Assembly (NCBI RefSeq): GCF_963678975.1
Contig: NC_089280.1
Location: forward strand, 19,397,863-19,461,862
DNA: 64,000 nucleotides
Direction of reading: 5' to 3'
Source: Dysidea avara
Lineage: Eukaryota > Porifera > Demospongiae > Dictyoceratida > Dysideidae
Both the position numbers and the translations under genes were made by a program. Below are positions 2,491 to 54,466 of the stretch, piece after piece. The notes beneath the pieces were generated by a model that saw only the letters and a list, made by a program, of their open reading frames with translations, was not told the DNA's origin and did no database searches. Each line of letters opens with the position of its first letter. Positions within the stretch are counted from its first letter, which is position 1.

Positions 2491-2566
2491 GATCAAGATA
2501 CTCTAATAGAGCAATCAGAAATTCTAATAGAACAGTCACTGAATATTGTTCTAATAAAGCAGTCAC
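2491..2566 (+). repeat. Spaced array of the CTCTAATAGAGCAGTCA motif (three copies)
   Basis: GATCAAGATA is followed by CTCTAATAGAGCAATCA, then TTCTAATAGAACAGTCAC at 2522, then TTCTAATAAAGCAGTCAC at 2549. The spacing is 21 and 27 bases. The core CTCTA-A-TAGAG is a near-palindrome. The same motif recurs through the window and is discussed in the findings. Confidence 0.7.
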
Positions 2567-2608
2567 ATACATAAATACAGCAACCAGCTAAAAGAATAGA
2601 AAACTATT

Positions 2609-3252
2609 TGTGATCGGATCTGCGAAAAGGGACATAATCGCACAAGCCTAAATTTACAGTATAAAGTATTGAATACATTGGGTGAAATACTTGCGTATTA
2701 TTGAAAAACTTCTGCTATTTTGTTACCCCTGTTTCTTAGTGAAGGAAGGGACTAACAATAAAACCCAGGATATCGTCGTATTCACCTGCTCAAGAGGAGG
2801 TGGAAAATCTTTGTTTCGTTGCAGTAGACCCAAGAATACGTAAGTTATGAGCGTTTGTTTACATCATGTCGAAGCGATCATACGCGATTGGTTTTTCTTC
2901 ACGGATTTAGCCTTTGTGTGCAGTGAAGAAGGATGAATAAAGGACAAACTTACCCAGTAATTGATTCCCCTGTTCATGGCAAACATGATGGTGAAATGTT
3001 TAGCTCCGTACCTCAATCTGTCAGTAAGTTACAACCATTTTTGTAAGTGCCTGTAATGTATTTTCTCTATACTTGCTGTACAAATTAATTTTTCTGTTGT
3101 TGCTACTTTGTAGGGCTGTAATTCCCAATGTTATTGGCGTATGAAGCTGAAACTGTGCCAGTGGATACACTTGGCTAAGTAGATTATAAATATTTAATAA
3201 CCAGGAATTCAAAAATATGCGATTATGTCCTGTTTTCGCAGATCCGGTCACA
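2609..3252. mobile_element. Non-autonomous element with about 34-bp terminal inverted repeats
   Basis: The left arm at 2609-2642 begins TGTGATCGGATCTGCGAAAA and the right arm at 3218-3252 is its near-perfect reverse complement, with two or three differences. The 640-bp interior has no convincing reading frame. The terminal sequence resembles those at 33916-34165 and 44202-44448. A target duplication could not be defined with confidence. Confidence 0.65.
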
Positions 3253-3994
3253 TTTGAAAAACATCAATGTAAACAGTCTAATACTGGCATTATTGGCCAT
3301 AGATGGTGGCATAACTCTGGGCATTTCTCAAAAGCATAATAGATAAAATAATTTTTAAGCACTGCTCAAGAAGCATAATGCTCAACTTTCAGAGCATAAG
3401 CTCCAAGCTAACTACTTTTGATAGTTGGGAAAACTTGATGATGGTCAGTCAAGAACTATGATGGTTGGACAAATGCTAGGCATGAGGCTGAAAGAGATGC
3501 ATGGTAGTGCATCAATAATCCTAATCGTACAGTAAGTGGTACTCTATAGTAGGGTCCATGGAGGGTTTGGGCATTCCTGCCCAAAAATACCATCCAAAAA
3601 CCAGCCTTAGTTTTCCTTCATAACATGTACAGCTGGCAGTATTGGTTAGGCATGAACAAGCCCAAAAATTCCTTCAGCGTGACCTCCCAACCCTTCCTAC
3701 AAGCTTCCATGGAATTGTAAAAAATTACTCTTTATAACTGAGCTTTCTGCTAGCTAAGTGACTGACTAATTATGTAACTGATGCCTCCATCCAAGTGTAA
3801 AGTTAATATTAAAGAGGTTGATGTTTGATGTTGCTTTGACCCGAAACGTTCCATTTCAATAACTGCAGCAGCTACAGTGCTTTTGTCTCCTTTGTGTCCT
3901 ATCTGTTTCTTCACTACCACATAGGTATTAATTCGCAGTAATATTTGATGGCCTCAGTACAGCTGGCTGTCATGAGATTTATCTATAATTCTGT
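3253..3994. other. Intergenic, nothing recognised
   Basis: AT-rich non-coding sequence with no long reading frame, RNA gene or clear element end. Confidence 0.5.
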
Positions 3995-4225
3995 AGTGGC
4001 TGGATTGATTGCAGAGGTGTTTCTCGTGCTGCTCTTCATTTGTAATGCTGTGTACCAGTTATATAACGAAGCAGAACAACTGATTCACTTATTACTGATT
4101 TATAGTCAGGGCACATGTTTAGTCACAATTTCTAGAGTGACTGGATTGATTGCAGAGGTATTTCTCATACTTTTCTTCTTTTGTAATGGGTGGAACAAAG
4201 CTGAAAACAAAGCAGAATGGCCACA
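3995..4225 (+). repeat. Two diverged copies of an unit with 141-bp period
   Basis: TGGATTGATTGCAGAGG occurs at 4001 and again at 4142, each followed by a similar T-rich stretch and an AA-rich segment ending near AGCAGAA. A related segment (GGCTGAAAACAAAG) is seen at about 52465 and in reverse near 5575. The 139-residue open frame here is explained by the repeat; it is hydrophobic but has no splice support or homology that I recognise. Confidence 0.5.
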
Positions 4226-4630
4226 TCACTTTCCAGTACCTTGTAGTCAAGCACGTGTGTTAAGTATTTTTATAATATGTCTGGCCAGCACCATTCTTTC
4301 CTTTGATGTGGTATGTGTTGGTTCACCAGTCAATAAATTATATTACAAAAAAGTGAACAATTAAATATAAGGAAAAAGTAGAAAACTTATATTGAGTAGG
4401 GATCATAATACTTGCATGCTTACTTAACCTTGCATTTGGCAACTCTAATAAAATAAATCATGTTTATCAGCAGGCTGGCTAGTACAAGTATTAGGGAAGA
4501 GGTAGTTGTCAGGTCTGTAATAATTGTTTTAAAAACTGTTGGAATAAGTTAGATTTTTACCGATTTGTTTACTACTTACATAATAAAATGCTCACCCTAC
4601 TCATTGATTACTTTACATGCGCATAATTAC

Positions 4631-5243
4631 CAGGGCTGGGGGGGACCAGGCATTTTCCCTGGGTTCTACTTTGTAGGGGGACCCAAGAGGACTTCCAGGG
4701 GCTTCATAGCTACACAACAGCTATATCCACACATACAATAAACATACAGCAGTGCAAATATTCCCTCAAGACTCGAGGACACAGGAAACCTCAGTAAGAG
4801 ATACCATCTATCAGCCAGCAAATTCGTAGCATATATTTCCAGGAGCAACATGCTCTTATAAGGCGCTTATAATGAACACTGTAACAATGTGACTTTTTCC
4901 ACCAAATAGATTGAGGTACTCTAATAGAACAGTCACCCTAATACAGCAATCAGGAAAATATTCGGTTACATTAGCTACTCTAACAAGCTATTAAATTCAG
5001 CCTCACATTTAATTTTGGAGAGTATGGTGTTTAAAACTTTCCTGAGTGGTAGCTCTGTAGCTATTTGGCAGAAGGTTTGCTATACAATTGAAGCTTGAGA
5101 TACCCTAATAAAGTAGTCACTTTAATTATAACAGTCAGATGAACATTAAAAATTATACTGTGATAAACTATCAAAATCACTATCATATTCAATCTAAGAG
5201 GGTATAATTTTCCCCAGACCCCTAAATTCTTTTGACAGCCCTG
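4631..5243. mobile_element. hAT-like non-autonomous element
   Basis: The left end starts CAGGGCTGGGG and the right end finishes GACAGCCCTG. Flanks are ATAATTAC on the left and ATTAATTAC on the right, an 8-bp target duplication that has gained one base. The interior holds degenerate copies of the CTCTAATAGAGCAGTCA motif at about 4911-4954 and 5097-5137. No transposase is present. Confidence 0.6.
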
Positions 5244-7240: not shown

Positions 7241-7262
7241 TTCAAGTGATGATCTTCACACC

Positions 7263-7268
7263 TTTTAT
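7263..7268 (-). promoter_or_regulatory. Candidate polyadenylation signal of the kinase gene
   Basis: On the minus strand an AATAAA hexamer lies just beyond the CA-repeat tract that follows the kinase stop codon. It is the first such signal after the stop and would place the whole repeat in the 3' UTR. Confidence 0.4.
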
Positions 7269-7274
7269 TGTAAT

Positions 7275-7524
<250 letters not shown>

Positions 7525-7686
7525 CTACCGTCTATTCACCTGCATTGCAATCTGATTTTGATTTTCCATTGCTTTAGGAGCACTATTAAATTTTTCCTGA
7601 CATTGTTCTTTAAGCTGCCGTATTTCATTTCTCATTATTTGGAGTTGACCTTCATAATCTTTACGTTCTTTCTTACATGTACTAAG
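7525..7686 (-). CDS. Kinase gene, exon 3: coiled-coil C-terminus
   Basis: After an AAAG acceptor the exon starts in phase 0 and reads LSTCKKERKDYEGQLQIMRN, continuing as a charged heptad-rich helix to MQVNRR and a TAG at 7525-7527. Phase and composition fit exon 2, which ends in phase 0 inside a similar coiled coil. An alternative is a donor CAG/GTGAAT at 7540, which would leave the gene open further downstream; no further exon was found, so a terminal exon is preferred. The following minus-strand sequence is a long CA repeat and then a polyadenylation signal. Confidence 0.6.
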   Translation of the reverse strand, partial: LSTCKKERKDYEGQLQIMRNEIRQLKEQCQEKFNSAPKAMENQNQIAMQVNRR

Positions 7687-9489
7687 CTTTAACAATAAAA
7701 CACACATATTAGATAATACAAATATAATTATGAGAATTTGTTTTAATATGTGCAAAGACAAGTAAGTGATCAGTGTGATGATATGAATAAACATAAAAAA
7801 TTAATAGAGTACTATTCAACCTTATTATATATATACTTATATATATATATATATAGTGTAAATTTTTACATTATAGCAGAAACCAAATTATGAATTTTGA
7901 AAGGTTAAATCCTTAAAAAAAGGACACATTTCCAAGATTTTGAAAGGCAGAACTTTATTATACAGCAATTTACGGTATACATGTAAATCTCTCGAACATG
8001 ATGTGACAAACTTAATCCACCACGTAAGCCATTTTAGAGTCACCAGCAAGGGGAGTTGAGGTATAAGCATGTTATATCACTAGCAACTCTTATCTCAATT
8101 AGTGGTATAGTAGAAAATATATTATAGCCATTCTCAATCTTTGCATTTACTGGATCACAAGTAAAGTATTTATATTTAAAGATTAACAGATTTCAGAATC
8201 AATTTACTTTTGCATCAAAAGGGACTCCTCAAACTAAAAGCCCATTAAACTCACCCATTATGCTGTGTGTACATACCATAATTTGCTTTATGGTTGCAAA
8301 ATAAATTTGGTAAGCAAAAATCACACAAAAAAGTCTTAATTTTTGAGTATATAGGGTGGCTACTAGCTAGGCTACTAGCCATGTGCCAGAACTTTGTTTA
8401 ATTTGAGGTTCAAAGATTCCAGACATTGGCTAACTGTGTGGTTCACACATCAAGCATCAAAGAATGTGGCTTTTTTTACCACTGTAGACTGCAAAAAATA
8501 GATCGGTCATGTATATAAACATTTTACTCAGTGTTAATCATACAAAAATACTCTTATATACAAAACTTTTTACCATCAACATGAATTTGATACAAACACA
8601 AAGCTGTGCTTCAATTTACCTCCAGCTTTGGAAGGTTACACACAAAATTTGATTGATATCATTTCATGAATTCCTGAGATATAAGTCCACAAAGTTCGTG
8701 TTAGTTTTTAGTTTTTGTATGAGTTAAATTCAAATGTGTGAAGTGTTCACTTTGAAATATGGCACAGGGTTAAAGACAAATTTTAGTAGTAACCGTGATT
8801 GAAATCCAGTATAATATACACATTGATAGAGTTACCGCTGTACATGAATAATAATATTATTGATGGATTGATGTAAAAAAATTGTTCTTGCAAACGCAGA
8901 GTAAATTGCATGTGAGAAGAAGTTGAAAATTAGTCTGTAGATTGGTTAATCATTGTACAACAGTCCAAGAACACAGTGGTTGGACTTTTGTGTGTCCCAA
9001 TTTATGGGGCTCATATATAAGTGCAACAAGGCACAAAGGAACATAACACTCAAACTATAGCTGTGTTTTAACCATTGTGAAATTCCTTTGCATGCACAAT
9101 CCTTTACGTAATTGCCTGGTTATGTTAGCAGTTAATTTATGAGTAGCCATATAAATTGTCTCCTACAGTAGAGAGAGATCTCAAAATGGCTACTGAGTTC
9201 ACAGTTACAATAGTATTATTGTAAGAGCTGTTCAGACTCTTTAATTAAGCACACAAGTACTTTGACTCATTATGGCTTGCTTTTAAGAACCAGTATCGTA
9301 TATTGAGTAGCTTGAAGATGATGATGCAACAAACCACTGAGTATGCGCATGCTCTATATGGACTTGATGTTTAAAGTTAATCGGACAATGGTTGGAACCA
9401 CTAGTATTACGCTCCTTGACGTTTATAAGTTCAAGCTTAAGGTTACGGAATATTACAAAATGCATGGGCAGAACATATTACAAAACCTG
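7687..9489. other. Kinase intron 2, proximal part, nothing recognised
   Basis: Lies in the 4.9-kb intron between exons 3 and 2. It contains AT-rich simple sequence, such as TA runs near 7824-7856. The remainder is unremarkable. Confidence 0.45.
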
Positions 9490-10458: not shown

Positions 10459-12541
10459 GTAATAATTTCAATATACAGTATCTCTATGCCCCGGAAATGC
10501 CAATAGAGCCTACAGCTTTTGCTGTATTTGGCGGCAGAAAAACATGGTAGTGACAGCTGGAGCTGAGTGATGTATGGGTTGGCTTACTTGTCTTGCTACA
10601 ACAACTTGTAGTGTTCTACCTACCTCTAACTACACTGTAGCTGCATAAAAACAGTAAATATGAAGGGCTTCACCTTCATTTTAAACTTTTCACACTGCTA
10701 GACTGGTTTTATGGGCTTCTCAAAAAGTATCAATAGGCATTCAAAATTTTGAATGATAGCCTGTGACTATACCGTAACCTTAAAGTAATGATTCATATCT
10801 TTAGTGATAGTGATTTTTGAGGACTCAAGTACCTTTTGGAGCAACCCTGAAAGAAATTGAAGGAATACACAGCTATGGAGTTATAATGTAACACCAAGAC
10901 ACACATGTAACAACTGAATGATCAAGATAGTAAAATCAATTTGTTGTCATGCGTATGGGGTGAACCACTTGGGGAGAATGTTAACAAATTGATGTTGTAC
11001 TACTTCTAAATAAACCAAGTACCATGCAGCAAGCTGAAAATACATCATGATATAATTATTCAGTTTTGTTTTGTTGTATAACACTTTCAGAGTTATCAAG
11101 TAATAAGTTATTGTAATCTTATATTTACTAATTCATATAATTCTGTAATTACATTGCAGTACACTGCAAAGGAACAAAGCGCTTAAAACCACTAATAATA
11201 CACAGAAGTATCTTCTTATATTTTGTTTATAGTATTTTCTTATACAAATTATCTTGGAAAAGCCTTTTAATTTTTGTTTGTGTTAGTAAGGGACACACCC
11301 CCCTTTGACTTGAAGGATTTCTTTTTCCTCAGTGGGAGATCTATGTGGGATTTTGTGGTTTCGACAGTTAGCTTAGAGGTAGTCTTTATTATTGCAATAT
11401 GGATATTTATAGTAAAACCACTGTATTTCAGTGGCATGCAATTGCATTTAATTAACATCCACTGTAGCTACAACTCTCAACAACACTTTACCTTTCACCT
11501 TCCACTGCATTAAACATTAAAAATGATCAAAATACTCTAATAGAGCAGTCAAGTAACTACTGTAACAGAGGCAATAGCTTACAGTCACAATGTTTTCAAG
11601 TTTGATTATTAAATAGCTTAAAGCATTGGATTACTGCAATTTTAACTAAAAATAGCCTAAAATTCAATCTCAAAGCTTCTAACCCTCAAAAATCAAAAAT
11701 TTCTGGAGATCTGTGGTTTTATTTTACATAATATTGAGAACATTACTTTTAAAAGTCTTATTGTTCCTGGTAGCCTAGGATGCCAGCTACATAGTTTTCA
11801 GCTGTTTGACACCCACACAGCTTACTAATAAAAGCTTTCTCATCAAACTCTAGGAATCACACCAATGATTTGGACATGATCCTGGAATCAGGAATCAAAA
11901 GATCATTAGTAATTCGTTGTGTTTCTCTGTATTTCTATGCTTGTATCCTTATTGTAATGATAGTTGTACCAGGAATCACTTAGAATCACAGGAATCCTGT
12001 GTGGAATCACAGAATTGGTAGGATTCCGAATCACGTCAATCAAAATCCCTGTAGCTGAAGACCCCTCAGTCCTAATAAACTCACTGCACCCATATTTCAA
12101 ATCGGCACAAATTAACCACCTTAAATCAAAGCATGGAAATGTATTACAGGCTCTATGCAGCCTTCTTTTCTTGCACACAGGTTGCTTTTAGCGTACAAAG
12201 TTTGCTCACATGGGTGCAGAAAGACAAACATAACATACTGCGCATAAACAACACACATGCACATTTTTGGAAAACAAGTTCAACGTGCCCACAGCCGGCC
12301 TGCAGTCAGCTGTAGGAACGTGCACAGTTAAAAATTAGCCTGTAGATAAATTAACCATTGTAGAAATGCTTTTTTTCAGTTTAAAATAGATCTGAGCAAA
12401 GGCCATGGAGTTGAAAAATCAAACAAGCGCTTGATCAAGATACTATATAGAACAACAGTACACATAGACTAAATGATGGTCACATATGAAACTTTTAAAA
12501 GCTAATATTTTCTTTTGAAAGTATTACAATTAAAACTTTAC
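10459..12541. other. Kinase intron 2, distal part
   Basis: Mostly unremarkable non-coding sequence. One copy of the recurrent motif lies at 11524-11575 (ATGATCAAAATACTCTAATA followed by GAGCAGTCA and a decayed second unit). The 60 to 90-residue open frames at 11.3-12.3 kb overlap on both strands and have no coding support. Confidence 0.5.
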
Positions 12542-12841: not shown

Positions 12842-13147
12842 CAGGGGCGGTGGAGCGGGTCAAAGAGTGAGGGGGCCAGGCTAGATGTAAGTTGAAGACC
12901 AAAAAAAACAAAAACAAAGGTCACAGTCTGCTAGCTGACAATAGCTGCTCCACCAATTATATCTCCTTATTTATGACTACACATACGTATAGCTAGTAAT
13001 TTGCTACACTGAATACTGTGACTGCTGTATTAGAGTATCCAGATCCTGACTGTTCTATTAGAGTATCTCGATCTTTTCTTGCAAACAGTGTCCCAAAAAA
13101 GTGGGGGGGCCATGGCCCCCCTGGCTCCCCCGTCTCCACCACCTATG
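12842..13147. mobile_element. hAT-like MITE with perfect 8-bp target duplication
   Basis: The 306-bp element starts CAGGGGCGGTGGAG and ends CTCCACCACCTATG. GTATTAGC occurs immediately on both sides (12834-12841 and 13148-13155), a perfect 8-bp target duplication typical of hAT transposition. Near the right end (13018-13074) it carries two copies of the recurrent CTCTAATAGAGCAGTCA motif in reverse orientation. It lies in the first intron of the kinase gene. Confidence 0.85.
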
Positions 13148-14971: not shown

Positions 14972-16815
14972 CAGGGCCAGAGGAAGCACTTCTAAAGTGG
15001 TCAGGCCAAGGGGTAGGCAGTATGAAATTTTATTTTATTTTAAATGCTTTTTAATGCAGGGTAAGCCTGCATTAATGGCCTGTGGGCAACATGTACCCAC
15101 AAAAAAATACTGAGCACTTTGCTGTGTGAATACAATAGGGGATCTGGAGGTATGCTTCACTAGGAAAATTTTTAAAATTGCATGCTCTGAGATTAAATCT
15201 GGGACTATTTTCAGCTGTAGATTTCCTAGCAAATTATTGACTATAACACGTGTGTGTTAAACTCACTGCATGTTGCCATAATGTGTCCACATTAAAACAC
15301 ATGTAAATACAGTACTGTTCCCTTTTGTTATAGCTACTATACAAATGCAGCATGAGTCTAACATTTGAAACTGATAGCTACATATCTTAATCGGTGAAGA
15401 ACTTCCAAAGAACTCGCAATGAATGTAAGAGGTCGTCTTTCTTCCCAACTTCAAAGGGCGGTTGATTTGAATGGTGAATCTGGTACATCTTCCTGGTTAC
15501 TGGCCCTGCCATTACAGGAGCAGGGCTTCCATCTTAACGAACAAGAGTTCTGGGATGCTGTCCATCTGCGCTATGGATGGAAGTTGCTGAATGTTCCCAG
15601 TCACGTCACTATGTCTGTGGGGCTCCGTTTACCATCGACCATGCCATGGTCTGTCAACATGGGGGCTTAACCATTTTGCAACACAATGACTTGCGTGACA
15701 TCACGGCAGGTTTATTGTCAAGGATGTGTTCAGATGTTGCTACTGAGCCTCCCTTATAGCCTCTCAGTGGTGAAGTAATCACTCCCAAGTCTGCCAACCA
15801 ACAGATGATGCCAGGGCGGATATTCATGCACGCTGTTTTTGGGGATGGAGACAAAGTGCTTTTCTTGACGTAAGGGTGTTCCACCCTAATGCACCAAGTT
15901 ACCGTAACTCCAGCATACCATCTGTATATCATCGTCATGAATTACAGAAGAAGCAAGAGTATGGCAAACGTGTCCAGGAGGTGGAACAGGCTTCCTTTAC
16001 CCCTTTAGTATTTTCCACAACCGGTGGAATGGGAAGAGAAGCACTAACATTCTATCGTCGTCTGGCCGACATGCTTTCTCGCCACAGCTCAACATCTTAT
16101 AGTGGCACTCTGGCATGGATTCGCTGCACATTGTCCTTTCCATTGCTTCGTTCTGCTACAATGTGTATCCGGGGGACACTATCCATCCTTCATCGTCCCA
16201 ACAATGCTTCCCCGGAGATGGGCCATATTGCTGGCCCTAGGGACTTTTAGTTGTCCCCCTTTCAGTTGTCCAGCACACTTGCACCTTGGTACTGGGGGTG
16301 GTAGGCAAGGGCAGTACATCTAGCCCAGGAAAAAATAGCTATATAACTAAATTTTAATGTGATGAAGTCACAACTCATTGCATGAATAGCTAACTATGCA
16401 CTAAGTTATATGTTTAATCTTACCCTATCATGCTATGCTGCAGTGCTCATATATTCATCCAATTATGTACACTTCCATGCAAAGCTATATATATTTCGTA
16501 TTTGCTTCATAAAGCGGTTGACAAATAAATCAGTAAATACGTGAGTGCTCTATTAGGGTGACTGTTCTACTAGAGTGTTTCGATCTTTCCCATGATTGAT
16601 TGTCACAGGGAAGGATTTAACAGCATGATGTAAGTACTCTACTGACATTATATCACACAATGTTTGCATGATGTTCTAGGCATCTATCATTCCCAAAAAC
16701 ATGCTAGCATAATCGGCCAGTGCCTATCAGTGACTCGGATATATATTTTTAAAATTAATGCTGAAAAAGTGGTCAGGCTATGGCCTGACTGGCTGGACCG
16801 CTTCCTCTGGCCCTG
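14972..16815. mobile_element. hAT-like element with CAGGGCCAGAGGAAGC termini
   Basis: The left end begins CAGGGCCAGAGGAAGC and the right end is its reverse complement, both followed by similar TCAGGCCA-rich sequence. The flanks TGTAT and CGTAT differ by one base, consistent with a 5-bp target duplication. The interior contains a decayed LINE fragment (15419-16250) and, near the right end at 16545-16588, two copies of the recurrent motif. No hAT transposase remains. Confidence 0.65.
15419..16250 (+). pseudogene. Decayed LINE fragment, C-terminal zinc-finger and nuclease-like region
   Basis: Three frames together give ordered blocks: SSWLLALPLQEQGFHLNEQE (15.49 kb), then CGAPFTIDHAMVCQHGG with a CCHC-like pattern, then HNDLRDITAGLL, FHPNAPSYRNSSIPSVYHRH and STTGGMGREALTFYRRLADM. 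This order is known to me from the C-terminal part of non-LTR retrotransposon polyproteins that are common in cnidarians and sponges. At least two frameshifts and internal stops show it is dead. A second fragment of the same family lies at 21500-22068. Confidence 0.65.
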
Positions 16816-17681
16816 CGTATTCTTAATTCTTTTCTTTTAGCACACTTTAGAAAAATGGCAATAACTTAGACATGCTTTAGTTTATTGACTTCAAATTTAG
16901 AAGGCAGCATGAACATAATGCAGCACATTTACAGTGCAATTTGTGTACAGAACAAATTAAGAACAAGGGAGTTGCAGGATTCTGAAAATTGCAAAAGTAA
17001 TTTGTTGTCACACCTACAGGGTAATTTGCTTGTTGAAAATTAGTATATACATGAAGTAATTATCGTAGTGCAAACCTTTTGTGGTTTGAAAGCACTGAGA
17101 GTATTAGCTAAGGAGATATAAAGCAAAAACCAAACATGTGAAACAAGCACAATCGAAATACTCTAATAGAACAGTCACTGTGACAAGTAAAAATAACATG
17201 CGTCTAGATGGTAAAGCTGAGGATGTAATCATAAAAGGATCAGTGGGATAGAAGCACTTGACCTTCAGATATTCAAGTGTACCAATAGTCACTGGGCTGC
17301 CATAATGAGACCTTGCTCCACACAAACAGGTCACAGCTGACCTGAGTAAAGAAAAGCTGGTGGAGCATCTAATTCAAGGCAACATTGCTATAACTCTGGT
17401 TTCTCTGAACAACAAGCAGGGATGTCAACTGCTTGTAAGCAGTTGTGGCCACACTGCCCATTGCCCCAAAAGTAGAGAACACTAATGGGGTGAAGGAGCC
17501 TATTTCAATACGCTGTTCATACATTCACTGTTTGTCATGCTCAAACCTTTGATCTATACAGAAGTATCTGCTGTGGTGCATTAACTAGGAGCAGTCAGAT
17601 TAAAGACTCCTACATCAAAGAAAGCCCTCTGATGATGATTTCCCCAGAATCCTTGCATACTAATGCCTCATCCTCCACATT
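16816..17681. other. Intergenic with one motif copy
   Basis: Non-coding sequence. One copy of the recurrent motif lies at 17152-17178 (AATCGAAATA then CTCTAATAGAACAGTCAC). Nothing else is recognised. Confidence 0.5.
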
Positions 17682-21015: not shown

Positions 21016-21204
21016 GTGATGAATGTTATAGGTGACTGCTCTATTAGAGTATCTCGATCTTAAGCACCTCCAATGTAGCTATATAGCTGATCCCATGCAT
21101 GCAATGATCCGTGCCCTTGTTGGATAACCTTTTAAGCACAAATCCATGTAGTGATAATGCCTGCAATGCTCATTATTCGCGTTCAAGATTGACAAATGAG
21201 AATA

Positions 21205-22265: not shown

Positions 22266-22398
22266 ATACTGTAATACCATCATTCATCTCTTGAAACAGT
22301 CTTGTTTCACTACTTTTTGTCACTTGGATCCCTACTTCATTTTAAAAATAATTTTAATATACTAATTTGGTTATATGTTATAGCATACAGCTACACAT

Positions 22399-22440
22399 GT
22401 GACTTCTATTAGAGTGACTGCTGTATGATAGTATCTCGAG
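22399..22440 (-). repeat. Recurrent motif, two copies
   Basis: In reverse orientation TTCTATTAGAGTGACTGCTG is followed by a decayed unit ending GTATCTCGAG. It lies just upstream of the LINE at 22566. Confidence 0.55.
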
Positions 22441-22565
22441 TCAGCCTTTCACCTACTGGGGGAGTGTTTTTGCTAGCGTTATGAATACAGCTAGACCAAT
22501 AATAAGGGTGTGTGGTCACCGTGTCCAAGTAAATAGATTGTTGAGAGGTGTGGTCTCTGTACTCA

Positions 22566-29260: not shown

Positions 29261-30983
29261 GTAAGTTTTGTGTTGTTTTGTAATCTTTTCAAGCCATGCA
29301 ATGTATGTAGAATACTTTAAAACTTTTAAAAACGTACTGTCGGGTGGAAGGTAGTCACTGGTACTTACTTTAAAGTGTGTAGTTACTTCGCTCTGGTTAG
29401 CGATTTTCAGCTCCAGAGCAATTTTCTGATGGCTGTGTCATCAGCTCAAAAGTATAAACTACTTCAAAGTCGGCATAACAATGCCATAATTGAAACTACA
29501 ACTCCACCTTAAGTATTGTTGCATCATTGTGGTACCTCCACTTTAGTTGTTTACCTTTATAAGTTGTTAACTTGACGTTTTTACTTAGCCACTTGCCTAT
29601 GGGTGTACATCATTGTATTGAGAAGTGTGCAGTGGGTGAAACATATTTGCTCACCACAAAGCATACAAAGATCACTGAGATCTGATACGATCTGAAGTTA
29701 CTCTCATTACATGTACAAACTTGCAGCTAGAAGCAACTGCAGTTTCAAGACAGTCCAGATTGCTAGATGGCTTCCTGATTCAATTGTGCCATTTTCCCCT
29801 TTAAAATGTATGGAGAGCCCTGGAGAAAAAATGTACCTTTTTTCAGTTTTTAAGCACTGTGCATGCCAAAGTAGCTAATTCCAACCCAACAAACTATATA
29901 TTTCTGAGATCAGCAATCAATACTCTATCTAGTGAGCATATAAAAAGCCCAAATTTAAAAATCAGGCTGGAATGCCTACTAGTGTATCGATCGCCGCAGG
30001 CACGGCGTTCAGAGATGCATTGACTACTCTACTAGAGTGTTTTGTACACTTCATTTAAAGCTGTGCATGTGACTGGTAATTGTATGATGCCTCAGGATGG
30101 TGGATATTGCAGGTCACCCTTGCGGGATCAGTGGCTTAAATTGAAGTGACTGCTCTATTAGAGTAGTCAGTAAATGCACTATATACAACAACAAGTACAG
30201 TATCAACATCTCAATTGACATTATAATGTTTACTCCTATAGGCTGCATGCCTAGCATAGCATAGCTACATGCATGCCTATGAGACAAAAATCCATTAAGG
30301 TGATTTGTCACTATATTATAGCTATCCCTCTGTCCCTCAGTAAACAAGTGATTAAATCAGTACAGTTGTTCAATAGGAGAGTTTGAAAATCACAAAAGTG
30401 CATTGTCAGGATAAGATATAGAGGTTTGTGAAGCTTCCAGAAGGCTGCATGGCTTGATATGGTGTCTCCAATTATTGGTATCATCAACTAGTATCACCAA
30501 CTGTATGGAAGATCATCTTATTGACAGCTGATATCATAGGCTGCTTGGTTGCATGGTAAGTTCTATGATATTTACATGAATTTGAACTATACATATTAAA
30601 TAGCTCATCCTTTAATTTAATTCTACCATCTGCTACTATAATCTGCAATGATTACACCAAAGAGATATCTATTATGTATGAAACTATGCCAAAACAGCCA
30701 AGCTGTATAAAGGGGTGTGGCCCAAAAAAACAGGGTGAACAAAGATCTGAAATCCAAGGTGGTGGTCAAGAAATGGCTGTGATGGTAGGTTAATAAAAAA
30801 AATTACAATTTAGGTGAATTTGTGTGATTTCACTAGGATCTGGCTCTAAATTCACTAGAATTAATAATTTTTGCCATTAACCTACCATCACAACCATTTC
30901 TTAGCTGAAACCTTGGAATTTGCATCCTTTTTCACCCTAGCTTTTTTGGAGGCAGCACCCTTTTTTCAGCTTGCAATTGACCG
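29261..30983. other. Non-coding stretch with two motif copies
   Basis: The recurrent motif occurs at 30019-30044 (TTGACTACTCTACTAGAGTG) and 30145-30170 (GTGACTGCTCTATTAGAGTA), both in reverse orientation. A 30-bp inverted similarity lies at 30770-30910 (CAAGAAATGGCTGTGATGGT and its reverse complement). No gene is supported. Confidence 0.5.
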
Positions 30984-34165: not shown

Positions 34166-37100
34166 TCTATAGTACTAAATAGTTATATAATGCAGCTATT
34201 CCCACAATCTATAAGAAAAGCCAAATCCCTATACAATTTAACATGTACATATCGGTGAATGAAAATGAATTCAAAATGATTTAGCGAATAAAAGTGAAGA
34301 TGTCCACATGTGATCAACAAGCAATCTACTGTAGATTAGTGGAAGTACATCGACCTCATCCTTGTATTCTTACAGTTAGGATGAAGAAATACTTCATCAT
34401 GAATGAAGCATTGAGCTTGCTGCTATTTTTAGTGAGTTTCCTGCAATACTGCAATCGTACCAACCATTTTTGGTAGATTCAAATGACTTCAGTTGCTTGA
34501 ATGTAGTGAATATTGTAATAGTATACCATAATGGCAACCAAATGTTCTAGTAATTATTGCTCTACTAGAGTAGTGGGATGCATGATTCAAAAGACACTTG
34601 CTTTACAAAACCTCAGAAATGCCCTTAGATCTGCCCTAGAGTTACGAATAGCAAGCAATAAACCAATCAAAAGTTTCAAAATTTATTGGGACGTGTGATC
34701 ATGATTTAGTTGTGGGTTAACGATTTCTCCATTACAGAAACTAATTCTTTGTATGAGGACTAATCATGACATTTTGTTTCGTGTTGTTTGACACTGAATT
34801 ATGTGTCGGTTGCTTGGATGGACTACATCAAATCCTTAGACAGTATTGCTAACAGTTAGTTGGTAACTGTACAAGTTGTCAAGTCATGCCACCTCTCCCC
34901 ACACAAACAAGCCACATGTGTCGTTTGCAATTTATGGTATATAAGAAAATTATACTATTGAGAGCGGAACTTTAGTTCCAAATCCTTAAAATACTGCCTT
35001 AACAAAGGCTAATAATGAAAACACTGCACTCAAGGGGTACTGCATAAGAAGCTATAGTACTATTAGCTAAAGTCACCGGTAAAATTTATCTAATCAGAAA
35101 CAGCCAACCTGAGGGTGGTAATGATAATGTAATACTTGACAATTAAGTGAACATGTGTGATAACATCATCTGGAGTATCTGAATGCTGGGAATGTTTTTA
35201 AAAAACAACACTTGCATGGAGTAATAATCGAATATAAGAAATATAAGAATAACCTTACAGACATAGAACATGTACTCAAAGTATGAAATAATTAGCATTT
35301 TTGCCATTTTACTGCATGGAGTTTGTCAACTATATCAACTATAAGGATTATTTTATTCATTCAAGTTAAAATCAACATGGACCAAATTGCATACATGCAT
35401 ATACATATGTATTGGAATTATTCTAGTACAAATTTTTCAGCTGTATATTTACCCAATATACACTATAATATAGTTACGTACCGTATTGCTGTTGAACATA
35501 ACAAATTAATTCACCAGTTACCAGATGCTATAGTACATATACAAATCTGTACTGTGGAGTGGATACCTTAGCATGGCATGTCTCAACCATGGAATGTCTT
35601 GATTATGTATCAGGGTGTCCTGATTTTGAAGTCAGTTTATGTACCAAGAGACACTGTGGTACCTAACTATGTAACTTCATGTAAGTGTCAACAGGATCAT
35701 TGTTTGCATGATTCTTATTACTATAATATTATAGCTGTTAATAACAGTTTGTAAATGTTTCAAAGCCTTATGCATTAGCACCTGTATGGGTATGTCCCTG
35801 CAATGAAGTTTGTATATGACAAAAGGAACAAACCACAAATGCAGTTATTTAAACTAATAAACTGATCTAGCATTAGATGTGTACAGCTAATTACATGCTA
35901 AGCTATAATATATTAAAATACTTCTCAAATATACATTATAATATAAAACATGCCACAATCATCTTCAGTTTACATGCTAATGTGTTCTTACATAACTATA
36001 TATACAGCCTGTACATGCTGATGACTGTGCCAAATGGTGAAACTCTCATCTCTTCTGGCCAGTTTAGATTGACTATCAAGCACATATGTACTACATACTG
36101 TATATTAGTATAGATATACAATAAACAAACTGTATCATTACTTTTAACCCTATATAGCTATACATACGTACGTAGTATGGATCTATTTTAGAGAGGATGT
36201 AGTCACAGCCACGGCTGAGTGACTGTAGTACCCTAGTGCACTCTCTTGAGCCGCAATGCTACTATCTCTGACAACCAGTGACTTAATAATATATGGTTAA
36301 CAGCATGAAAGAAAAAACAGGGGAATATTTTACTGATCTAGCAATGCATTTTAATGATTTTGTACTGCTTATACAAGTTTTGATTTATCTGGTCTTTGTA
36401 TCTAGGTGCTGTTTCATATAAAGTAGCTATGTAAGTGGTTTTTAGGGTGAACAGGGTTTCCATTATTCTAAAGTTTTTCTCTATATAAGTTATAAAAAGT
36501 AACTAATTTAAACTAGCAGGATAAACAGAAATTACTTGACTGTCTTTCATGTTAGGGTTTGCATGTTACAAGTTTGTGAAAACCTATTAAGGAAGGAAAA
36601 GACTTGTCAGATTCACTGCAACATTTTGCTACTATACAGCTGCAATGAATGCATAACTAACTTCATAGACTTCTTTTCAATCATGCCCGTTATATGTACT
36701 ATAATACGTACATGACTGTTGCTAAGGCACAAATAAGGACTAAAGCTTGAGTGAAAAGCTTTTACTTTTACCGCTCCAGCCTATAGCTGTATAACCAGGA
36801 CATATTGTTGAATGTTTGAACAAGGATACAGTGTAACAGCCCGTTGGTTGATGCTGTTGTTTTCCTGACAATGTTAGAGGAATTTTATAAAGGTTTTTTT
36901 TAGCAATTTATGTACTATTGATATTATGTACATCAAAAATAGTGAAACATAAAAAATAGTGAAACATAAATTTGGCTTTGCTTTTAGTAGTAAAAGTATA
37001 CAAAGTTAAGGAATTACTAGTGGATTTTAAGTGCCCAAGGTGAAACCAACTAATAAGCATTTAAAAGCACATATAATGATCCAACAGATAATTTTTAAAT

Positions 37101-43812: not shown

Positions 43813-43865
43813 TGTTTCTCTTGAATCACTAAGAAATGCTGTGTGAGTCTACTAGATGTAACTCT

Positions 43866-43875: not shown

Positions 43876-44201
43876 CTCCACATTGTGTTGTAAACAGGAT
43901 GATGAACATCCTGAATCTTTATACCCAAGCTCATGGGTGGTTCCAGACACTTCAGTAACTGGTTTCCAACTCCCCTGAATGCAACTTTTATCACGTGAAG
44001 CATACTAATAGCAAACCTCTACATACTGTAGAAAAATTACAGTGATATTGTAAGCTGAATACAAATATAAAGTGTAAGAGGAACTGCAAAATGATATGTA
44101 TATGGAGTGTATTTCAGAAAGGTCTGGGGGTGGACCCTAAAGACATTGTAAGATTAGATCACAGCTCATTATATGTTCAGTAGAGACATGGAAGATCATA
44201 C

Positions 44202-44448
44202 TGTGACCAAATTTGTGAAAGGGGGTCTTCCACACACATCCAATTTATTAACTTTGATGATTCATAACTTCAGGTTGGAAAATGCTAACAACATGAAATT
44301 TAGTCAGCAGTGAGCAAAAATATAGTTTAAAATGGTGGAGAAATTTTAAGCTTGTATACATGACTGTTTACTGAAATTTAAGTTACGGTCCTTCAAGTTC
44401 ATAAAATTGGATGCATGTGGAAGACACCTTTTCACAAATTCGGTCACC
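44202..44448. mobile_element. MITE with long inverted termini (unit B copy)
   Basis: Orthologous to 33916-34165. The right end here (GAATTCGGTCACC region reversed) is closer to the left terminus than in unit A, supporting TGTGACC as the true end. Confidence 0.65.
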
Positions 44449-48290: not shown

Positions 48291-48997
48291 ATGTTTGATT
48301 GTACTACTATTAGTTAGCTCTTTGCTTCAAGCTCATGCAGTCAGAGGTAAGACTGACATCATCATTCTAATATATATATACTCATGTAGGTTATTTACAC
48401 AAAATCATTTTTCCAGCTGATCAGGACCGGTCAAACAAAGACATCATACATACCCTTCTTCAGGCTATATACTCCAAATGATATACATGCTGGAGCAGAA
48501 TTTAACTGTCACTTCTGATTCAATTACAACAACCGCACTGACCTACACTACTGCTGGTACAAATGGTCATCTTTTCAAGTTACTGCTTGTACCAGCCAAT
48601 GTGTCAGAGAATAATGCTGACATTGTGGCAGTCATCACTATAGAATTAGAGAATACAGTGAGAAATGTAGACAGTGACCAAAATTCTTTCTATCCGATGG
48701 AGAGGATGGAATAGGATTTGAAATGAGAGAGCAAGGAGTTCGAGATTGTTGCCAAGGAATACACGTAACAATGGGAGGTATGTTTACATCAAGCAGAACA
48801 ATTCCTGGTGTTACCCACACTTCGACCATTCTACCAGAAGAATTTAATTTGTCATAAATATTAAGCCACATCGATGTTGGGGATCATGCTACACTGCTAT
48901 TAATAGTGGCTTGATTTCTCCAATTGAAGTACACAGGGAGGGTGGCAGTGAATGATACACCATCAACTATATCAAAGTGGATCTTCATAAGAACTGA
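48291..48997 (+). pseudogene. Decayed copy of the secreted protein gene, unit B
   Basis: Keeps the gene structure: a decayed exon 1 ending LQAHAV-like sequence at a GAG/GTAAGA donor (48345), a 71-bp intron ending TTTTTCCAG, and exon 2 from 48417 starting LIRTGQTKTSYIPFFRLYTP. Frameshifts and stops follow, but long blocks remain (FFLSDGEDGIGFEMREQGVR, then TIPGVTHTSTILPEEF) before TINYIKVDLHKN and a TGA. It is less decayed than the unit A copy. Confidence 0.85.
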
Positions 48998-49243
48998 TAA
49001 ACTTTTAGAGAAGTACTAGTTTTGATAACCATGGACTAGGATCAATGAGTTTTTTTGTCATTATTCTATACATACACCAAGGTAGGCTATATTTTTTGTT
49101 TGCTGTAAGACACAATTGCAATACATTTCAGTAATATAATAATGATCAGTAAAATTACTTTACTTAATGAGATTACAATATAAAACAATAAAAAGAATCA
49201 AATTGTTGAAACTATAGTGATACTGTATATAGAAAGACCAGTT

Positions 49244-49306
49244 CTATTTCTCCTCACTATGGTAAGCAATGATGATGGCACAAAGGACTGCAAAGACGAG
49301 TTTCAT
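49244..49306 (-). CDS. Short signal-peptide-like frame, unit B
   Basis: Counterpart of 38289-38351, one residue different. The same doubts apply. Confidence 0.3.
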   Translation of the reverse strand: MKLVFAVLCAIIIAYHSEEK

Positions 49307-51090
49307 TCAAATACATGATAGCAATTCTGCATATTGATCAACTCCAAGGCAGCTTGTCAGTCAGATGCTATAAACATCTCAATGACGAGGCCTCACATCC
49401 AAGCATCTCATCATAAAAAACAACAAGTACAGGAAAGGTCACAATATTGAGAAAAGCTTGCATGCAAAATCCATGCATGTGTATTGTGTTTCCAATAAAC
49501 TTAACACTTTAAGTGGCCTTGAGGCTTGTATGAGACATTTGAGTTACATACTGACATTGTCCTTCACTTACTGTACTAGAGTTTATAGAATAAGGCTACA
49601 TATGTAGCATGTATCAAGATGTTCTCATAATGTTACTATGGCAATATTTATAAACATGGATTATTGTGCTCTTCCCCAAGTGACACCAGAACCTGCTGTC
49701 AAGCAAAACTGCATGCCCATTGTGTCAGGAACCATAACTATTATCTTAATTTGTAAAGTGGCATGTTACATTTCAGCATGAACAAAGCTGCTGCATCATC
49801 ACACTATAGTGATGCTATACTATACTGCTTACACAATTCTGGTATATCCTGTCTTTGTATCTATTTAGTCTTAATATTAATATTGGTGGGTACTTTCTGT
49901 TACCACTCAAGTGTGCAGGTACACTGTATAGGCTATTAGGTTACCATGTTTCCATCATTCCATAGTCTTCCTCTATAAGGTAGCTATAAACTAATAATTT
50001 ACAATAGAAGCATAAACAGAGGCTGTCCTTGGCTTCAAGTTTAAGGTTTATATGTTTATGAAAATGTAATAAGGAAGGTATTTTGGTCCCTTTCTATTTT
50101 CCATAGCTCATATAGCAAACTTTAGACAGACACTAATGCACCACTAGTTAAGCAAGGGAACTTTATATTACTAGCTGCTAATTAAGTATTCCAGCTTTTT
50201 TTGCTATCAAAATTAATTATGTGACTGCACATTCATCAAAGATAGGAAAACATTTTGGCATCATCTTTATATTAGTGCAATGAATCCGGAACAACATTTG
50301 TGGGCAGGTGTAGAAATTCCACTGATTATAATATGTAGGTAGTAGCTGTTACAGCTACCATATTTCATATAGCTAGTAGTAATTGTAAGCTGCTAAATGT
50401 AGTACATTAGATCTGGTGTAATATTACCTACTCACATTGTACATGTTTTAAGTGTTATAGGTAGTTACTGTTAATAATGTGCTCATTATGCATCCACAAC
50501 TAGTGCGGTTATATTATATAATTTGCATGATAGGTATATATATGCTATACTTATAAAGCAGTAGGGCATTGTGAATGCAGTATGCAACTTATCATTAAGT
50601 ATTAATGTTTGTATGCTACTGTGTCCTAGTACATCCAGTTATTATACTTTTATGGATTAGGAACTACAGAAACAGATTAACTGAAACCTGTACGTAAGAG
50701 CAACCCCAACTTGAAAATTTAATCTTCCCATGTAGCCACACAAAGGAAACATGTGACTTGTTGTTATGGGTTGAGTTATGGTGACTCAACCACTTGTGCA
50801 GCTATCAACTAATTGTCATACAAAACAGCCTAGTGTACACATATATATATTATTATTATATAATATTCACAAATATGTTTTTGACACACAGTATATTGAG
50901 TCATCATGATTATTTGCCATGCAGGTAATGTTTGCATGTACTGTATATGGTATAACCTTTCATATTGTCAACCATTGTCAGCACTATATATTATAAGTTC
51001 TGACTGGATAGCAACTCTGATCTAAATGCGTATAGTATATTCAACAGTGATAGGTATAATTTTTGGTACATTGTATATTAATGGTTAAGA
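49307..51090. other. Unit B distal part, no gene recognised
   Basis: Colinear with 38352-40480 of unit A, non-coding. The empty site for the unit A SINE is at about 50162. Confidence 0.55.
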
Positions 51091-51423: not shown

Positions 51424-51929
51424 GGAGCGGGAGAAGGTGCAGAAGATAACAGACATTTTGAATGGAGTGGAAAGAAGTGATATTCATTGCTGAAACAAAC
51501 TGGAAGCCGGTTTGTTTTGTTAACCCAGAGCTCATGCAGTGAATTTCAGGAAGATGTTCTATATTTGCCTTGCCAAGCAAAGGGTAAGAAACTAAACCTG
51601 CTTTGTTTGTGCCTGCCCTTCACAAAATTCTGTAATTACAGAATGAGAATGACAAAACTGTCTTAGGCCACCATCGTTTAGTTGCAACAGTTGAGAATTT
51701 TTATGGCGTAATAGAGCATGTGCATTCAACTGAAAATGGACATGTAGACTACAAGAAAATACTTACAGAGGTATGGAAGTATAGTGAATTACGTATGCTA
51801 TCATATTCTCAAGCATCACAAAAATTTATAGCCATTAGTCATAAGACCTGGACATTGTGGAGATGGGTGGTTAATTATATAGCAATATTATATAATACTG
51901 AACAGGTAATCAAGTTCCCAAGTTTGTAA
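51424..51929 (+). pseudogene. Exons of a decayed gene of unknown function
   Basis: MEREKVQKITDILNGVERSD at 51424 runs into a frameshift, after which SLLKQTGSRFVLLTQSSCSE and QEDVLYLPCQAKG lead to a GTAAGA donor (51584). A TAATTACAG acceptor at 51641 opens NENDKTVLGHHRLVATVENF, continuing to HVDYKKILTEVWKYSELRML. The splice phases of the two exons do not agree, which with the frameshift suggests a pseudogene. I do not recognise the family. Confidence 0.45.
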
Positions 51930-52912
51930 TAATGCCAAGCTGTAGTGAAGGACAAATCAGGCTGGATTTTAGCTGATATTTTTGCAAGAGACCAAACCTT
52001 TGTGCTATCAATTTATGGAGCCCGCCTATCAATTTTCTGATATATTAGTTTGGGAAAAAGATTTATAGAACAGTCATTTGTTCTAATAGAGCAGTCAGTA
52101 AGTGATCTTAGAAGAAATCTGTAGGGGCATGCCTCCAGACCCCCTAGCTATGTGTGTATTTTCACACGGTACTTCGCTTTACAACTACCTGGAACAGACC
52201 CCCTGATTTCTTCACTGTTCAACGTTGCTTGGTATCTTAATTTGGCATACCGCAGTACTTATAATGCGAACATCATGGTCCTACTTGAGTCTTCTTTTAT
52301 GTATCTTTGCTGACAGTGGAAGATGTTGATTTGTGGTAGCTATAGCTTCACGTAATGGCTTCCCTACACGTGTAACAGAAGTTATCTGTATTTTCTGTTA
52401 CTGTAGTGACTGGAATGGTTCCAGAGGAGCTTAATTCCCATGCAATGCTGTGTAACTGGCTGAACATGGCTGAAAACAAAGTGTAGTGGCCTAATTATTG
52501 TTGGGGGTACGTTCAGATGAATACATGAAGTATGGCACCTGTTTCAGTTAACTGTGACTATTTGACTTACTCTGTTTGTGCAGACTACCCACTGAGTGAA
52601 ACTCAACTATCCTTTGTTTAAAATGAAATGCATTGAAATAAGTTAGACTATGCCACAAAAATTATTATAATTATTCACCTATTAAATTGCTTCAGCAAAC
52701 AGTTCAATATACATCATCACATTCTGTGTACTCAATTGTACCATTAAGTAAACATATACACGTTTGTATATATCTATATTGTTCTAACCTTCTTGGTGAA
52801 TAGTTGGATTTCTTAGTGAATCAGTGAATTTTTTCATAGTCTGTTGTATATTCTGATGAGTTAAGATGTGTCATGCACATGGATTATTAACAGATAACGT
52901 TTGTTTATTTAG
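51930..52912. other. Non-coding, one motif array
   Basis: The recurrent motif is present at 52067-52104 (AGAACAGTCATTTGTTCTAA then TAGAGCAGTCAG). Other sequence may be the intron between the exons at 51.6 kb and the PHD-like exons. Confidence 0.45.
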
Positions 52913-53153
52913 AATCACTTGATTACTATTGTCATTCTTGTGGAATGATTAGTTTGGATGATGATATGACTGACATGGTGAGGTCTAGTTATGCAAACAA
53001 ATTTGTATTTGTGTGTGGATTCCATAGGTCAGGTGCAATAGTTGCTCATCAGGGGTATGGTACCATGAATGGTGTCTACGAAGACATGTGGTTACACCAG
53101 GCAAGATGAAAGTGGATATAACTTTTCTAGGTCTTGCTGTTCATCAAAATTGA
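52913..53153 (+). CDS. PHD-like zinc finger in two exons with a 50-bp intron
   Basis: Exon a (52913-52977) follows TATTTAG and reads SLDYYCHSCGMISLDDDMTD; exon b (53028-53153) follows a TCCATAG acceptor and reads VRCNSCSSGVWYHEWCLRRH, ending in TGA. Joining them through a GTGAGG...CATAG intron gives C-x2-C, C-x2-C, H-x2-C with an aromatic YH before the histidine, the first six ligands of a C4HC3 PHD finger that in chromatin proteins reads histone tails. The last C-x2-C pair is missing, so the finger is truncated or the gene decayed. It could be the C-terminus of the gene at 51424-51929. Confidence 0.55.
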
Positions 53154-53618
53154 TCAAATAGAGCTGTGCCTTTGTAACTTATGTATTGGAGTATACTTAG
53201 CTACATGTGTAACACAGCATACCTGATTCCAAACACTATATGTTTGCACTAATAGCTGTATGAGGTGACATAATATGTAACTGCATGTTACATCTGCATG
53301 CATGGGATATATAATGTGAGAGTGAAACTATAAGTATGTGTACCATGTAAACTGGACATTAAAGATATAATGTTGGGACACGAGTTACAATGCACCAAAC
53401 CTTATGTGCTGATAAACATTTCATAGCTGGTGGAACATGCATATACAGTGTTTGTGCTGGACAAATGCTATAGAAAAACATACATGCAGGCTGGACTGTA
53501 CATGCGCCCATCAATATCAGCTGAACGAAACGAGATGAACCTGCTAGCTACTACAAATGCTGTAGTATGCAGAGGGCAAAACTGAGAAAGACAGTATACA
53601 CCTTATCCAGGCCAGCTG

Positions 53619-54466
53619 CAGGGGCGGATCCAGGGGGGGAGGCTTTGGGGGCTGAAGCCCCCCCCCCCCCCCTTCATATTTAGGCTTTACTTGATCAATA
53701 TGCTGAGTATTATAATGAAATTTTGTCTTAGCATAATTATATGATCACTAATAATACAAATACTCATAAAACCACCTTATAAACATTTTCCAAGGTATTA
53801 TCAGTGGATTTATGCTAAAGTTTATGCAACAAGGACCCGGATCAGCATTGGAGGCGTACAAGATCGAGATACTCTAATAGAGCAGTCAGCTAACTACTCT
53901 AATAGAACATTCACTGGAAACATGTAGTTGGTTCTGTTATGGAATTTTTCCAAATCTGCCTGCACCTATAGCTACATACAATGAAGTGCATTGGTCTGCA
54001 TGTTTAAAGGGCTTCATTCATCTACTTGTGTAGTTAATATGTATGGCAATACTTAATTCAGGTACACAATTACCATTGAAAATGCTCTCAAATTCAATCT
54101 TGTATTGTTCAAATTTCAAAATTTTCTACTTTCAACATTATTATTCTAACATGCATCTATTCTTGGTTGTCCGTACCTACCCAAACTTTTCCATTAGCAA
54201 AATGCTTCAGAGAGCCATACCTATAATCTAAAGGCAGTATATAAAATATCTACAGGCAGAAAATATTAGGGATTTTATGTGGAAATGTCTCCAAATTGCA
54301 GTATTTTAGCATCAATTTTTCAAAATTTTCCTGGGGGGGCATGCCCCCAGACCCCCCTAGTTCCAGCATGCTTCGCATGCTGGGAAGTGTGCTTCACACA
54401 CCTCTACCCAAGAGATTAGTACCTTGACTTAGCCCCCCCCTTTTATAAATCCTAGATCCGCCCCTG
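53619..54466. mobile_element. hAT-like element with CAGGGGCGGATC termini
   Basis: The left end CAGGGGCGGATCCAGG and right end CCTAGATCCGCCCCTG are 16-bp inverted repeats with one mismatch. AGCTG flanks both ends, a candidate 5-bp target duplication. Poly-G and poly-C runs follow each terminus. The interior is non-coding and has two motif copies at 53859-53916 (GATCGAGATA then CTCTAATAGAGCAGTCAG). Confidence 0.75.

What the first reader, a model, noticed from the sequence alone, without database searches (positions are those of the whole stretch)
2491..53916. Recurrent motif CTCTAATAGAGCAGTCA in spaced arrays throughout the window
I find it at 2491, 4911, 5097, 11524, 13018, 16545, 17152, 21032, 22399, 30019, 30145, 34558/44839, 52067 and 53859, in both orientations and often as two or three copies 20 to 30 bases apart, frequently preceded by GATCGAGATA. 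The core CTCTA-A-TAGAG is a near-palindrome, as expected for a dimeric DNA-binding protein. Chance cannot explain so many matches of this length. It is not a standard repeat I can name.
Basis: seen in the sequence. Interest (0 to 1): 0.8.

Follow-up and report, generated by a model that had tools for sequence, protein, structure and literature searches.

The report
Shared 27-base module in sponge MITEs
A short DNA word scattered tens of thousands of times through this sponge-like genome sits, often in pairs, inside several otherwise different families of small jumping genes, as if they all carry the same docking site for one DNA-binding protein.

Summary
The window has 23 matches at up to 3 mismatches against 0.21 in shuffles. 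The window's own 550.8 Mb genome has 32,707 exact copies and 82,870 at up to 1 mismatch, with zero for the reversed pattern; the window is about average. The conserved unit is longer than reported: (A)AGATCGAGATA-CTCTAATAGARCAGTCA, with the last 17 bases often repeated after a spacer of 0 to 15 bases. In 21 elements whose ends could be drawn, the array lies inside short hAT-like MITEs with terminal inverted repeats and target-site duplications. They fall into six TIR types, one seen only once, some with 8-bp and some with 5-bp duplications. With the module masked, 32 of 36 family pairs show no match. Units stay conserved while spacers and bodies differ. Three bounded hAT elements with transposase genes lack the module, but none has the carriers' TIRs. 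The best reading is a binding-site array kept by selection on MITE spread, probably for a host protein; binding is inferred, not shown. The motif also occurs in DNA, probably from the sponge Lamellodysidea, found in a bacterial MAG.

The parts
53619..54466 (+). hAT-like MITE, family A (848 bp): TIR CAGGGGCGGATCCAGG / CAGGGGCGGATCTAGG, 5-bp target duplication AGCTG; carries the module
   Evidence: same family with other duplications in L028, L036, L057
53862..53913 (+). module in family A: GATCGAGATA lead-in, unit 53872-53888, spacer GCTAACTA, unit 53897-53913
12842..13147 (-). hAT-like MITE, family B (306 bp): TIR CAGGGGCGGTGGAGCG / CATAGGTGGTGGAGAC (11 of 16), 8-bp target duplication GTATTAGC
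   Evidence: second copy in L023 3423-3737 with a different duplication
13019..13073 (-). module in family B: lead-in plus units at 13047-13063 and 13019-13035, 28 bases apart
2491..2565 (+). three-unit array (2501, 2522, 2549) with lead-in; 89% match over about 98 bp to the T-type copy at L025 1225-1322; boundaries not found
4909..4952 (+). two units (4919, 4936) end to end
5093..5119 (+). single degenerate unit (5103); flank 81% identical to L022 6405-6554 over about 150 bp
11525..11551 (+). exact unit (11535) with degenerate lead-in; no boundaries found
16542..16585 (-). two units (16542, 16559) end to end; weak flank match to the T type
17151..17177 (+). single unit (17161) with degenerate lead-in
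21033..21059 (-). exact unit with GATCGAGATA lead-in; weak left-flank match to family A
22398..22441 (-). degenerate unit (22415) followed by CTCTAATAGAAGTCA
30021..30037 (-). unit with 2 mismatches
30147..30169 (.). overlapping units on both strands forming TGACTRCTCTAATAGAGCAGTCA, a near-palindrome
52081..52097 (+). unit with 1 mismatch, preceded by a degenerate stretch ending TAGAACAGTCA
34554..34570 (-). 3-mismatch match; counterpart at 44838-44854 in a duplicated segment; possibly chance

Best explanation
The motif is the repeated unit of a short internal module, (A)AGATCGAGATA-CTCTAATAGARCAGTCA-(spacer 0 to 15)-CTCTAATARARCAGTCA, carried by small non-autonomous TIR transposons (hAT-like MITEs) of several TIR types. 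Shown: copy number, arrays, placement inside 21 bounded elements, sharing across families whose other sequence is mostly unrelated, and presence of the motif in DNA probably from a second dysideid sponge. Inferred: the module is an array of binding sites for a sequence-specific DNA-binding protein. It is kept because it raises the chance that a MITE is mobilised or retained, for example by opening chromatin. The protein is more likely a host factor than any one transposase. Copies decay freely once inserted.
For: Genome counts with zero reversed-pattern controls. The same TIR recurs at independent loci with different target duplications: family A AGCTG, TCCAC, TGTTA, CTTGA; C TCCAG, TGATT, GTGCC, GAACC; B GTATTAGC, GGGAGTAA; T AAGGAGTG, ACTGCAGT, CTATTATG, TTTACCTG, CCCCATTG; G CTGTATGA and ATAGGGAG. 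With the module masked, 32 of 36 family pairs lose every BLAST match at E <= 1e-4 (low-complexity filter on), while all 36 match unmasked. Across B, B2, F and C (8 elements, 4 of them C) the module is 94% identical and the rest 71%. Units are nearly identical between families while spacers differ in length (0, 4, 8, 10, 11, 14, 15) and sequence, which points to selection on the units rather than copying of a block. Within young family A (4 copies) the module (97%) and the rest (96%) are equal, so single inserted copies show no constraint. Three bounded hAT elements with BED and hAT-dimerisation domains (L073, L075, L076) hold no module inside. By the strict unit pattern the module lies 59 to 291 bp from one end and 106 to 607 bp from the other, not at a fixed distance from a TIR.
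Against: No binding, expression or transposition data. Of 150 scored hAT matches I fetched wider stretches for 4; 3 were bounded and lack the module, one (L074) was not bounded and also shows no motif. None of the three has the TIR of a carrier family, so a matching autonomous partner with the module is not excluded. L065, an unbounded hAT fragment, has one weak motif match (15.1 bits) about 950 bp beyond its reading frame. Single TIR + TSD calls are weak: 30 of 89 clusters pass, but so do 21 of 100 random positions; I kept 21 of the 30, dropping 9 with odd duplications, lone unlike termini or misplaced ends, so the case rests on families that recur. F has one copy and the second R copy is a loose call. 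34 of 89 clusters match no bounded family, and 16 of the 22 labelled A do so only weakly (53 bits or less), probably through leftover module sequence. In the T family the contrast is weak (73% against 70%; 86% over the reference's units), because arrays of different layout align badly. In the B/B2/F/C alignment a poly-T tract is as conserved as the module. Without the filter, some families also share G-rich ends or poly-T. Of 6 TIR + TSD elements found in stretches not fetched for the motif (the window and L030-L041) only 2 carry it; in L022-L029, which were fetched for it, 10 of 10 do.
Confidence: 0.55

Rival explanations
1. Transposase-binding subterminal repeats: the array is the cis sequence that one or a few hAT-type transposases bind, as subterminal repeats are bound in plant hAT elements (recalled), so families with different TIRs use related transposases.
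For: Arrays sit inside hAT-like elements, nearer one end in families A, B, B2, C, F and R. hAT transposases are abundant: 1,875 first-look candidates, of which 150 were scored, all over the cut-off.
Against: Three bounded hATs with transposase genes lack it, though with other TIRs. Carriers have 5-bp and 8-bp duplications and unlike TIRs. The module is more central in the T and G types.
Confidence: 0.25
2. Mosaic hitch-hiking: the module arose once in one MITE and was passed to others by recombination or chimeric MITE formation, without function of its own.
For: The lead-in AAGATCGAGATA or a close variant precedes the first unit in every family label. Some families also share stretches beside the module, G-rich ends or a poly-T tract; A-R, B-F, B-R and T-Tp still match after masking.
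Against: Units are conserved while spacers inside the same module are not; copying of a block would carry spacers too.
Confidence: 0.15
3. The module is a tiny mobile element or insertion hot spot nested in the MITEs.
For: Inverted pairs of units exist (1,062); in L026 and L023 a lead-in or its complement stands on both sides.
Against: Unit number and spacers vary, and I noticed no duplication flanking the module by eye; no systematic test was made. The inverted form in L026 lies inside a MITE with TIR TAGGGACCCGCCGATT and duplication TCCATTAG.
Confidence: 0.03
4. Host-level regulatory elements conserved at their locus.
For: Between two aligned anchors, probably in one intron, the motif is present on the same strand in this genome (two copies) and in the Lamellodysidea-like MAG contig (one copy), although the nearby sequence is not alignable.
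Against: One locus only. From the density in 12 unbiased loci (25 hits in 120 kb) a 577-base interval holds a copy by chance about 1 time in 8. Young-family copies show no constraint.
Confidence: 0.07

Closest known systems
hAT MITEs (non-autonomous hAT elements)
   Same: Short, TIRs beginning CAG, TAGG or CATAGG, 8-bp duplications in families B, B2, F, T, Tp and G; the motif itself is in very high copy number.
   Different: Families A, C and R have 5-bp duplications; families with unlike ends share a conserved internal module.
Subterminal repeats of hAT and CACTA elements (recalled, not retrieved)
   Same: Short direct and inverted motifs repeated at irregular spacing inside a DNA transposon.
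   Different: Here shared across TIR types, on one side or central, and absent from the three bounded hATs with transposase genes examined.
Conserved central domains of SINEs (CORE, V, Nin and others; search listing only)
   Same: A short internal domain shared by families with different ends.
   Different: Carried by TIR DNA elements and made of tandem binding-site-like units.
Transposon-dispersed transcription-factor sites (recalled)
   Same: Repeats spread many copies of a near-identical site through a genome.
   Different: Here several families with unlike ends carry it; no factor is known.

Membership tests
hAT superfamily MITE | TIRs with hAT-like termini | tested here: met
   TIR pairs 11 to 16 of 16 matching in 21 elements kept from 30 candidate clusters; hAT-like termini judged from recalled consensus
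hAT superfamily MITE | 8-bp target-site duplication | tested here: inconclusive
   Met in B, B2, F, T, Tp and G; families A, C and R have 5 bp. hAT clades with 5-bp duplications are recalled, not checked
hAT superfamily MITE | Too short for a transposase gene | tested here: met
   306 to 912 bp, too short for the 640 to 691 aa frames of the hATs examined
hAT superfamily MITE | Autonomous partner with the same TIR | tested here: inconclusive
   hATs with TAGGGCTG, TAGAGCTG and TAGGCCTG ends found; only the first bases agree with the G type
Subterminal transposase-binding repeats | Present in the autonomous element | tested here: inconclusive
   0 of 3 bounded hATs carry it, but partners with the carriers' own TIRs were not found
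Subterminal transposase-binding repeats | Bound by the transposase | not testable with these tools
   needs binding assay
Single interspersed repeat with a longer consensus | All copies share flanking sequence | tested here: not met
   32 of 36 family pairs share nothing at E <= 1e-4 once the module is masked, filter on
Curated structured RNA | Rfam match in the window | tested here: not met
   0 matches at gathering thresholds

The most novel reading that the evidence does not exclude
Dysideid sponges have a genome-wide network of tens of thousands of near-identical, often tandem, sites for one host DNA-binding protein, seeded by many different DNA transposons that have each acquired or kept the same module because binding helps them spread; some inserted copies may now serve the host as regulatory or architectural sites.
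Probability: 0.3. Interest if true: 0.75.

Novelty: new variant of a known kind. Interest (0 to 1): 0.52.

Why it matters
MITEs are usually thought to need only sequences their transposase recognises. A module shared by families with different ends and different target-duplication lengths suggests a second cis requirement, probably met by the host, which can be tested with one pull-down. It also gives a handle for recognising mobile elements in this group of sponges, and a ready set of about 80,000 candidate sites (82,870 at up to one mismatch) for one factor.

Tried and rejected
Prokaryote and viral scans: 6 viral stretches and 15 genome stretches hold an exact 17-mer. No GATCGAGATA lead-in is seen beside them, so I read most as chance. 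Exceptions: two contigs of MAG SP12ARB1 (L010, L019); L018, with degenerate repeats beside the match; and L006, with a second match (22.6 bits) about 700 bases away in what looks like repeated viral sequence also seen in L004. L018 and L006 were not pursued. A scan for a degenerate 27-mer in viral contigs found nothing. Rfam: nothing. Literature: the exact 17-mer is in 0 papers of the held library; of six further strings one 13-mer was found once, in a Drosophila driver-line paper of which I saw the listing only. A search for shared internal motifs in hAT MITEs listed two papers that I did not open. A search for a Dysidea avara assembly paper found none. Helical phasing of units: distances of 17, 21, 25, 27, 28, 31 and 32 do not share one phase, so I dropped it. 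A transposase gene beside a module (L067) looked like an autonomous carrier, but the module there belongs to a separate 400-bp G-type MITE. A repeat with a minisatellite tail (L031, L044, L045, L048, L051, L054, L055, L059) carries the module but its ends were not found. An alignment of the Lamellodysidea interval gave no usable homology around the motif. Empty-site joining at the hAT in L076 gave no bounded outer element.
Full report
What the window is. The window is animal-like DNA: one open frame is a TRAF-type RING/MATH protein and another a protein kinase. It lies in a 550.8 Mb assembly of 108 contigs. A stretch of likely host DNA in a bacterial MAG from the sponge Lamellodysidea herbacea (SP12ARB1; paper PMC7313196, passages seen) aligns to this genome at 77% over 588 query bases and 85% over 123 bases, colinear on C12. 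I therefore take the window to be from a dysideid or related sponge; this is an inference. Reading that MAG contig as part host DNA rests on its G+C falling from about 55% to 35% and on that alignment.

The observation. 23 matches at up to 3 mismatches against 0.21 expected. Genome-wide there are 32,707 exact copies and 82,870 at up to one mismatch; the reversed pattern gives none in either search. The window's 4 exact and 10 up-to-one-mismatch copies are what the genome average predicts. In 12 stretches of 10 kb taken without regard to the motif (L030-L041) the weight matrix finds 25 hits above 14 bits; 4 of the 12 have none. In 8 stretches chosen because listed copies lay there (L022-L029) it finds 53.

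The unit. Aligned copies show a lead-in before the 17-mer and often a second 17-mer after it. The lead-in plus 17-mer, GATCGAGATACTCTAATAGARCAGTCA, occurs 18,122 times exactly. Direct pairs with up to 30 bases between units number 7,253 and inverted pairs 1,062. The near-palindrome is not better kept than the tail: among 20 window copies positions 15 to 17 are invariant while positions 9 and 11 vary, though positions 4, 8 and 10 inside it are invariant too.

The carriers. I looked for a target duplication plus an inverted repeat around each of 89 motif clusters from the window and 40 own-genome loci (L022-L061). 30 of 89 pass; so do 21 of 100 random positions, so a single call means little. 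I kept 21 of the 30. The 9 dropped are window 4919 and 5103, L026 4150, L028 3136 and 3674, L029 6321, L039 1676, L042 462 and L053 894; L053 is a family A copy with misplaced ends. What convinces is recurrence: the same TIR at several places with a different duplication each time. Families, labelled by me: A and C (CAGGGGCGGATCCAGG, 5-bp duplications), R (CAGGCCCGTAGCCAGG, 5 bp; its second copy L043 is a looser call), B and B2 (CATAGG-GGNGGA on one end, 8 bp), F (CAGGGTCGCCCACAGG, 8 bp, one copy), T and its palindromic form Tp (TAGG...ATT variants, 8 bp), and G (TAGGGCTGGGCGGTAT, 8 bp). In the window, family A is 53619-54466 and family B is 12842-13147; I found no recurring bounded element for the other window copies. 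Two G copies are 99.5% identical over 400 bp, so that family moved recently. A further repeat with a minisatellite tail also carries the module.

Mostly only the module is shared. With the module masked and the low-complexity filter on, 32 of 36 family pairs have no BLAST match at E <= 1e-4, while unmasked all 36 do; A-R, B-F, B-R and T-Tp keep one. Without the filter some pairs also share G-rich ends (A and C have the same TIR) or a poly-T tract. In an alignment of B, B2, F and C (8 elements, 4 of them C) the module is 94% identical and the rest 71%, with the poly-T tract as high as the module; in R (2 copies) 96% and 93%; in young family A (4 copies) 97% and 96%; in T (5 copies) 73% and 70%, where units of different arrays fall against each other. 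Within the module the units are nearly the same in all families but the spacers differ in length and sequence. That is the pattern of separate binding sites kept by selection during spread, with no sign of constraint on single copies afterwards.

Host factor or transposase. hAT transposases are abundant here: 1,875 first-look candidates, 150 scored. I fetched wider stretches for 4 of the 150. Three could be bounded by TIR and duplication: L073 1792-4127, L075 about 1660-4372 and L076 1913-4287. All three have BED and hAT-dimerisation domains and none holds a module; motif copies in L076 lie outside its hAT. L074 has a hAT gene and no motif but could not be bounded. Of the 8 shorter hAT loci that came, L067 has a module that proved to be a separate G MITE, L065 has one weak match (15.1 bits), and the other six have none above 14 bits. 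L031 6553-9251 is bounded, has a 607-residue frame without a Pfam hit and no module. The TIRs of these elements are not those of the carriers, so this is evidence against but not proof. Module position (59 to 291 bp from one end, 106 to 607 from the other) and the mix of 5- and 8-bp duplications also speak against one transposase. I put a host factor first and the transposase second.

A count without selection. By a stricter TIR + TSD rule, 6 elements appear in the window and L030-L041, and 2 carry the motif; in L022-L029, fetched because of the motif, 10 of 10 carry it. The numbers are too small to say whether module-bearing MITEs outnumber others.

A second species. The MAG holds three copies of a 16-base core at up to one mismatch in 2.9 Mb. 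One (L064) has the whole lead-in, AAGATTGATATA-CTCTAATAGGACAGTCA, but the search that would have tested whether that contig is sponge DNA did not complete. A second contig (L063) shares short repeats with this genome, best 88% over about 80 bases. The third copy lies between the two aligned anchors of L010, where this genome also has two copies on the same strand, although the sequence round them cannot be aligned. One locus is not enough to claim conservation.

How ordinary is it. MITEs are ordinary and so are subterminal repeats. My few searches showed no description of a module shared by MITE families of unlike ends in sponges, but they cover only an open-access library and most subscription papers are missing.

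Noticed in passing
window 32134-40219 and 42228-50809: Two copies of a long segment 10.1 to 11.0 kb apart, 83 to 99% identical in the pieces listed, with inverted copies inside; a local duplication.
   Followed up: no
window 58400-60515: Open frames with a weak Ulp1-type protease match (58400-59131) and a DDE_1 endonuclease match (59290-60069, minus strand), so another DNA transposon or its remains may lie here.
   Followed up: partly
window 7246-7692: Tandem array with register steps of 8 to 14 bases (repeat family D1) inside a 148-codon open frame.
   Followed up: no
L018, minus strand, about 4790-4861 (Psychrobacter MAG contig): An exact 17-mer followed by degenerate repeats containing ATAGAGCAGTCA and ATAGAGCGCTGA; probably unrelated.
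   Followed up: no
L031 and L044, L045, L048, L051, L054, L055, L059: A longer repeat with a minisatellite-like tail (GTAGAGAGWTCAGCTA...) downstream of a module whose 17-base units are joined end to end.
   Followed up: partly
MAG SP12ARB1 contigs C94, C106, C176 (L062-L064): A published bacterial MAG appears to contain sponge host DNA; contig JACOMT010000094.1 looks part bacterial and part sponge-like.
   Followed up: partly
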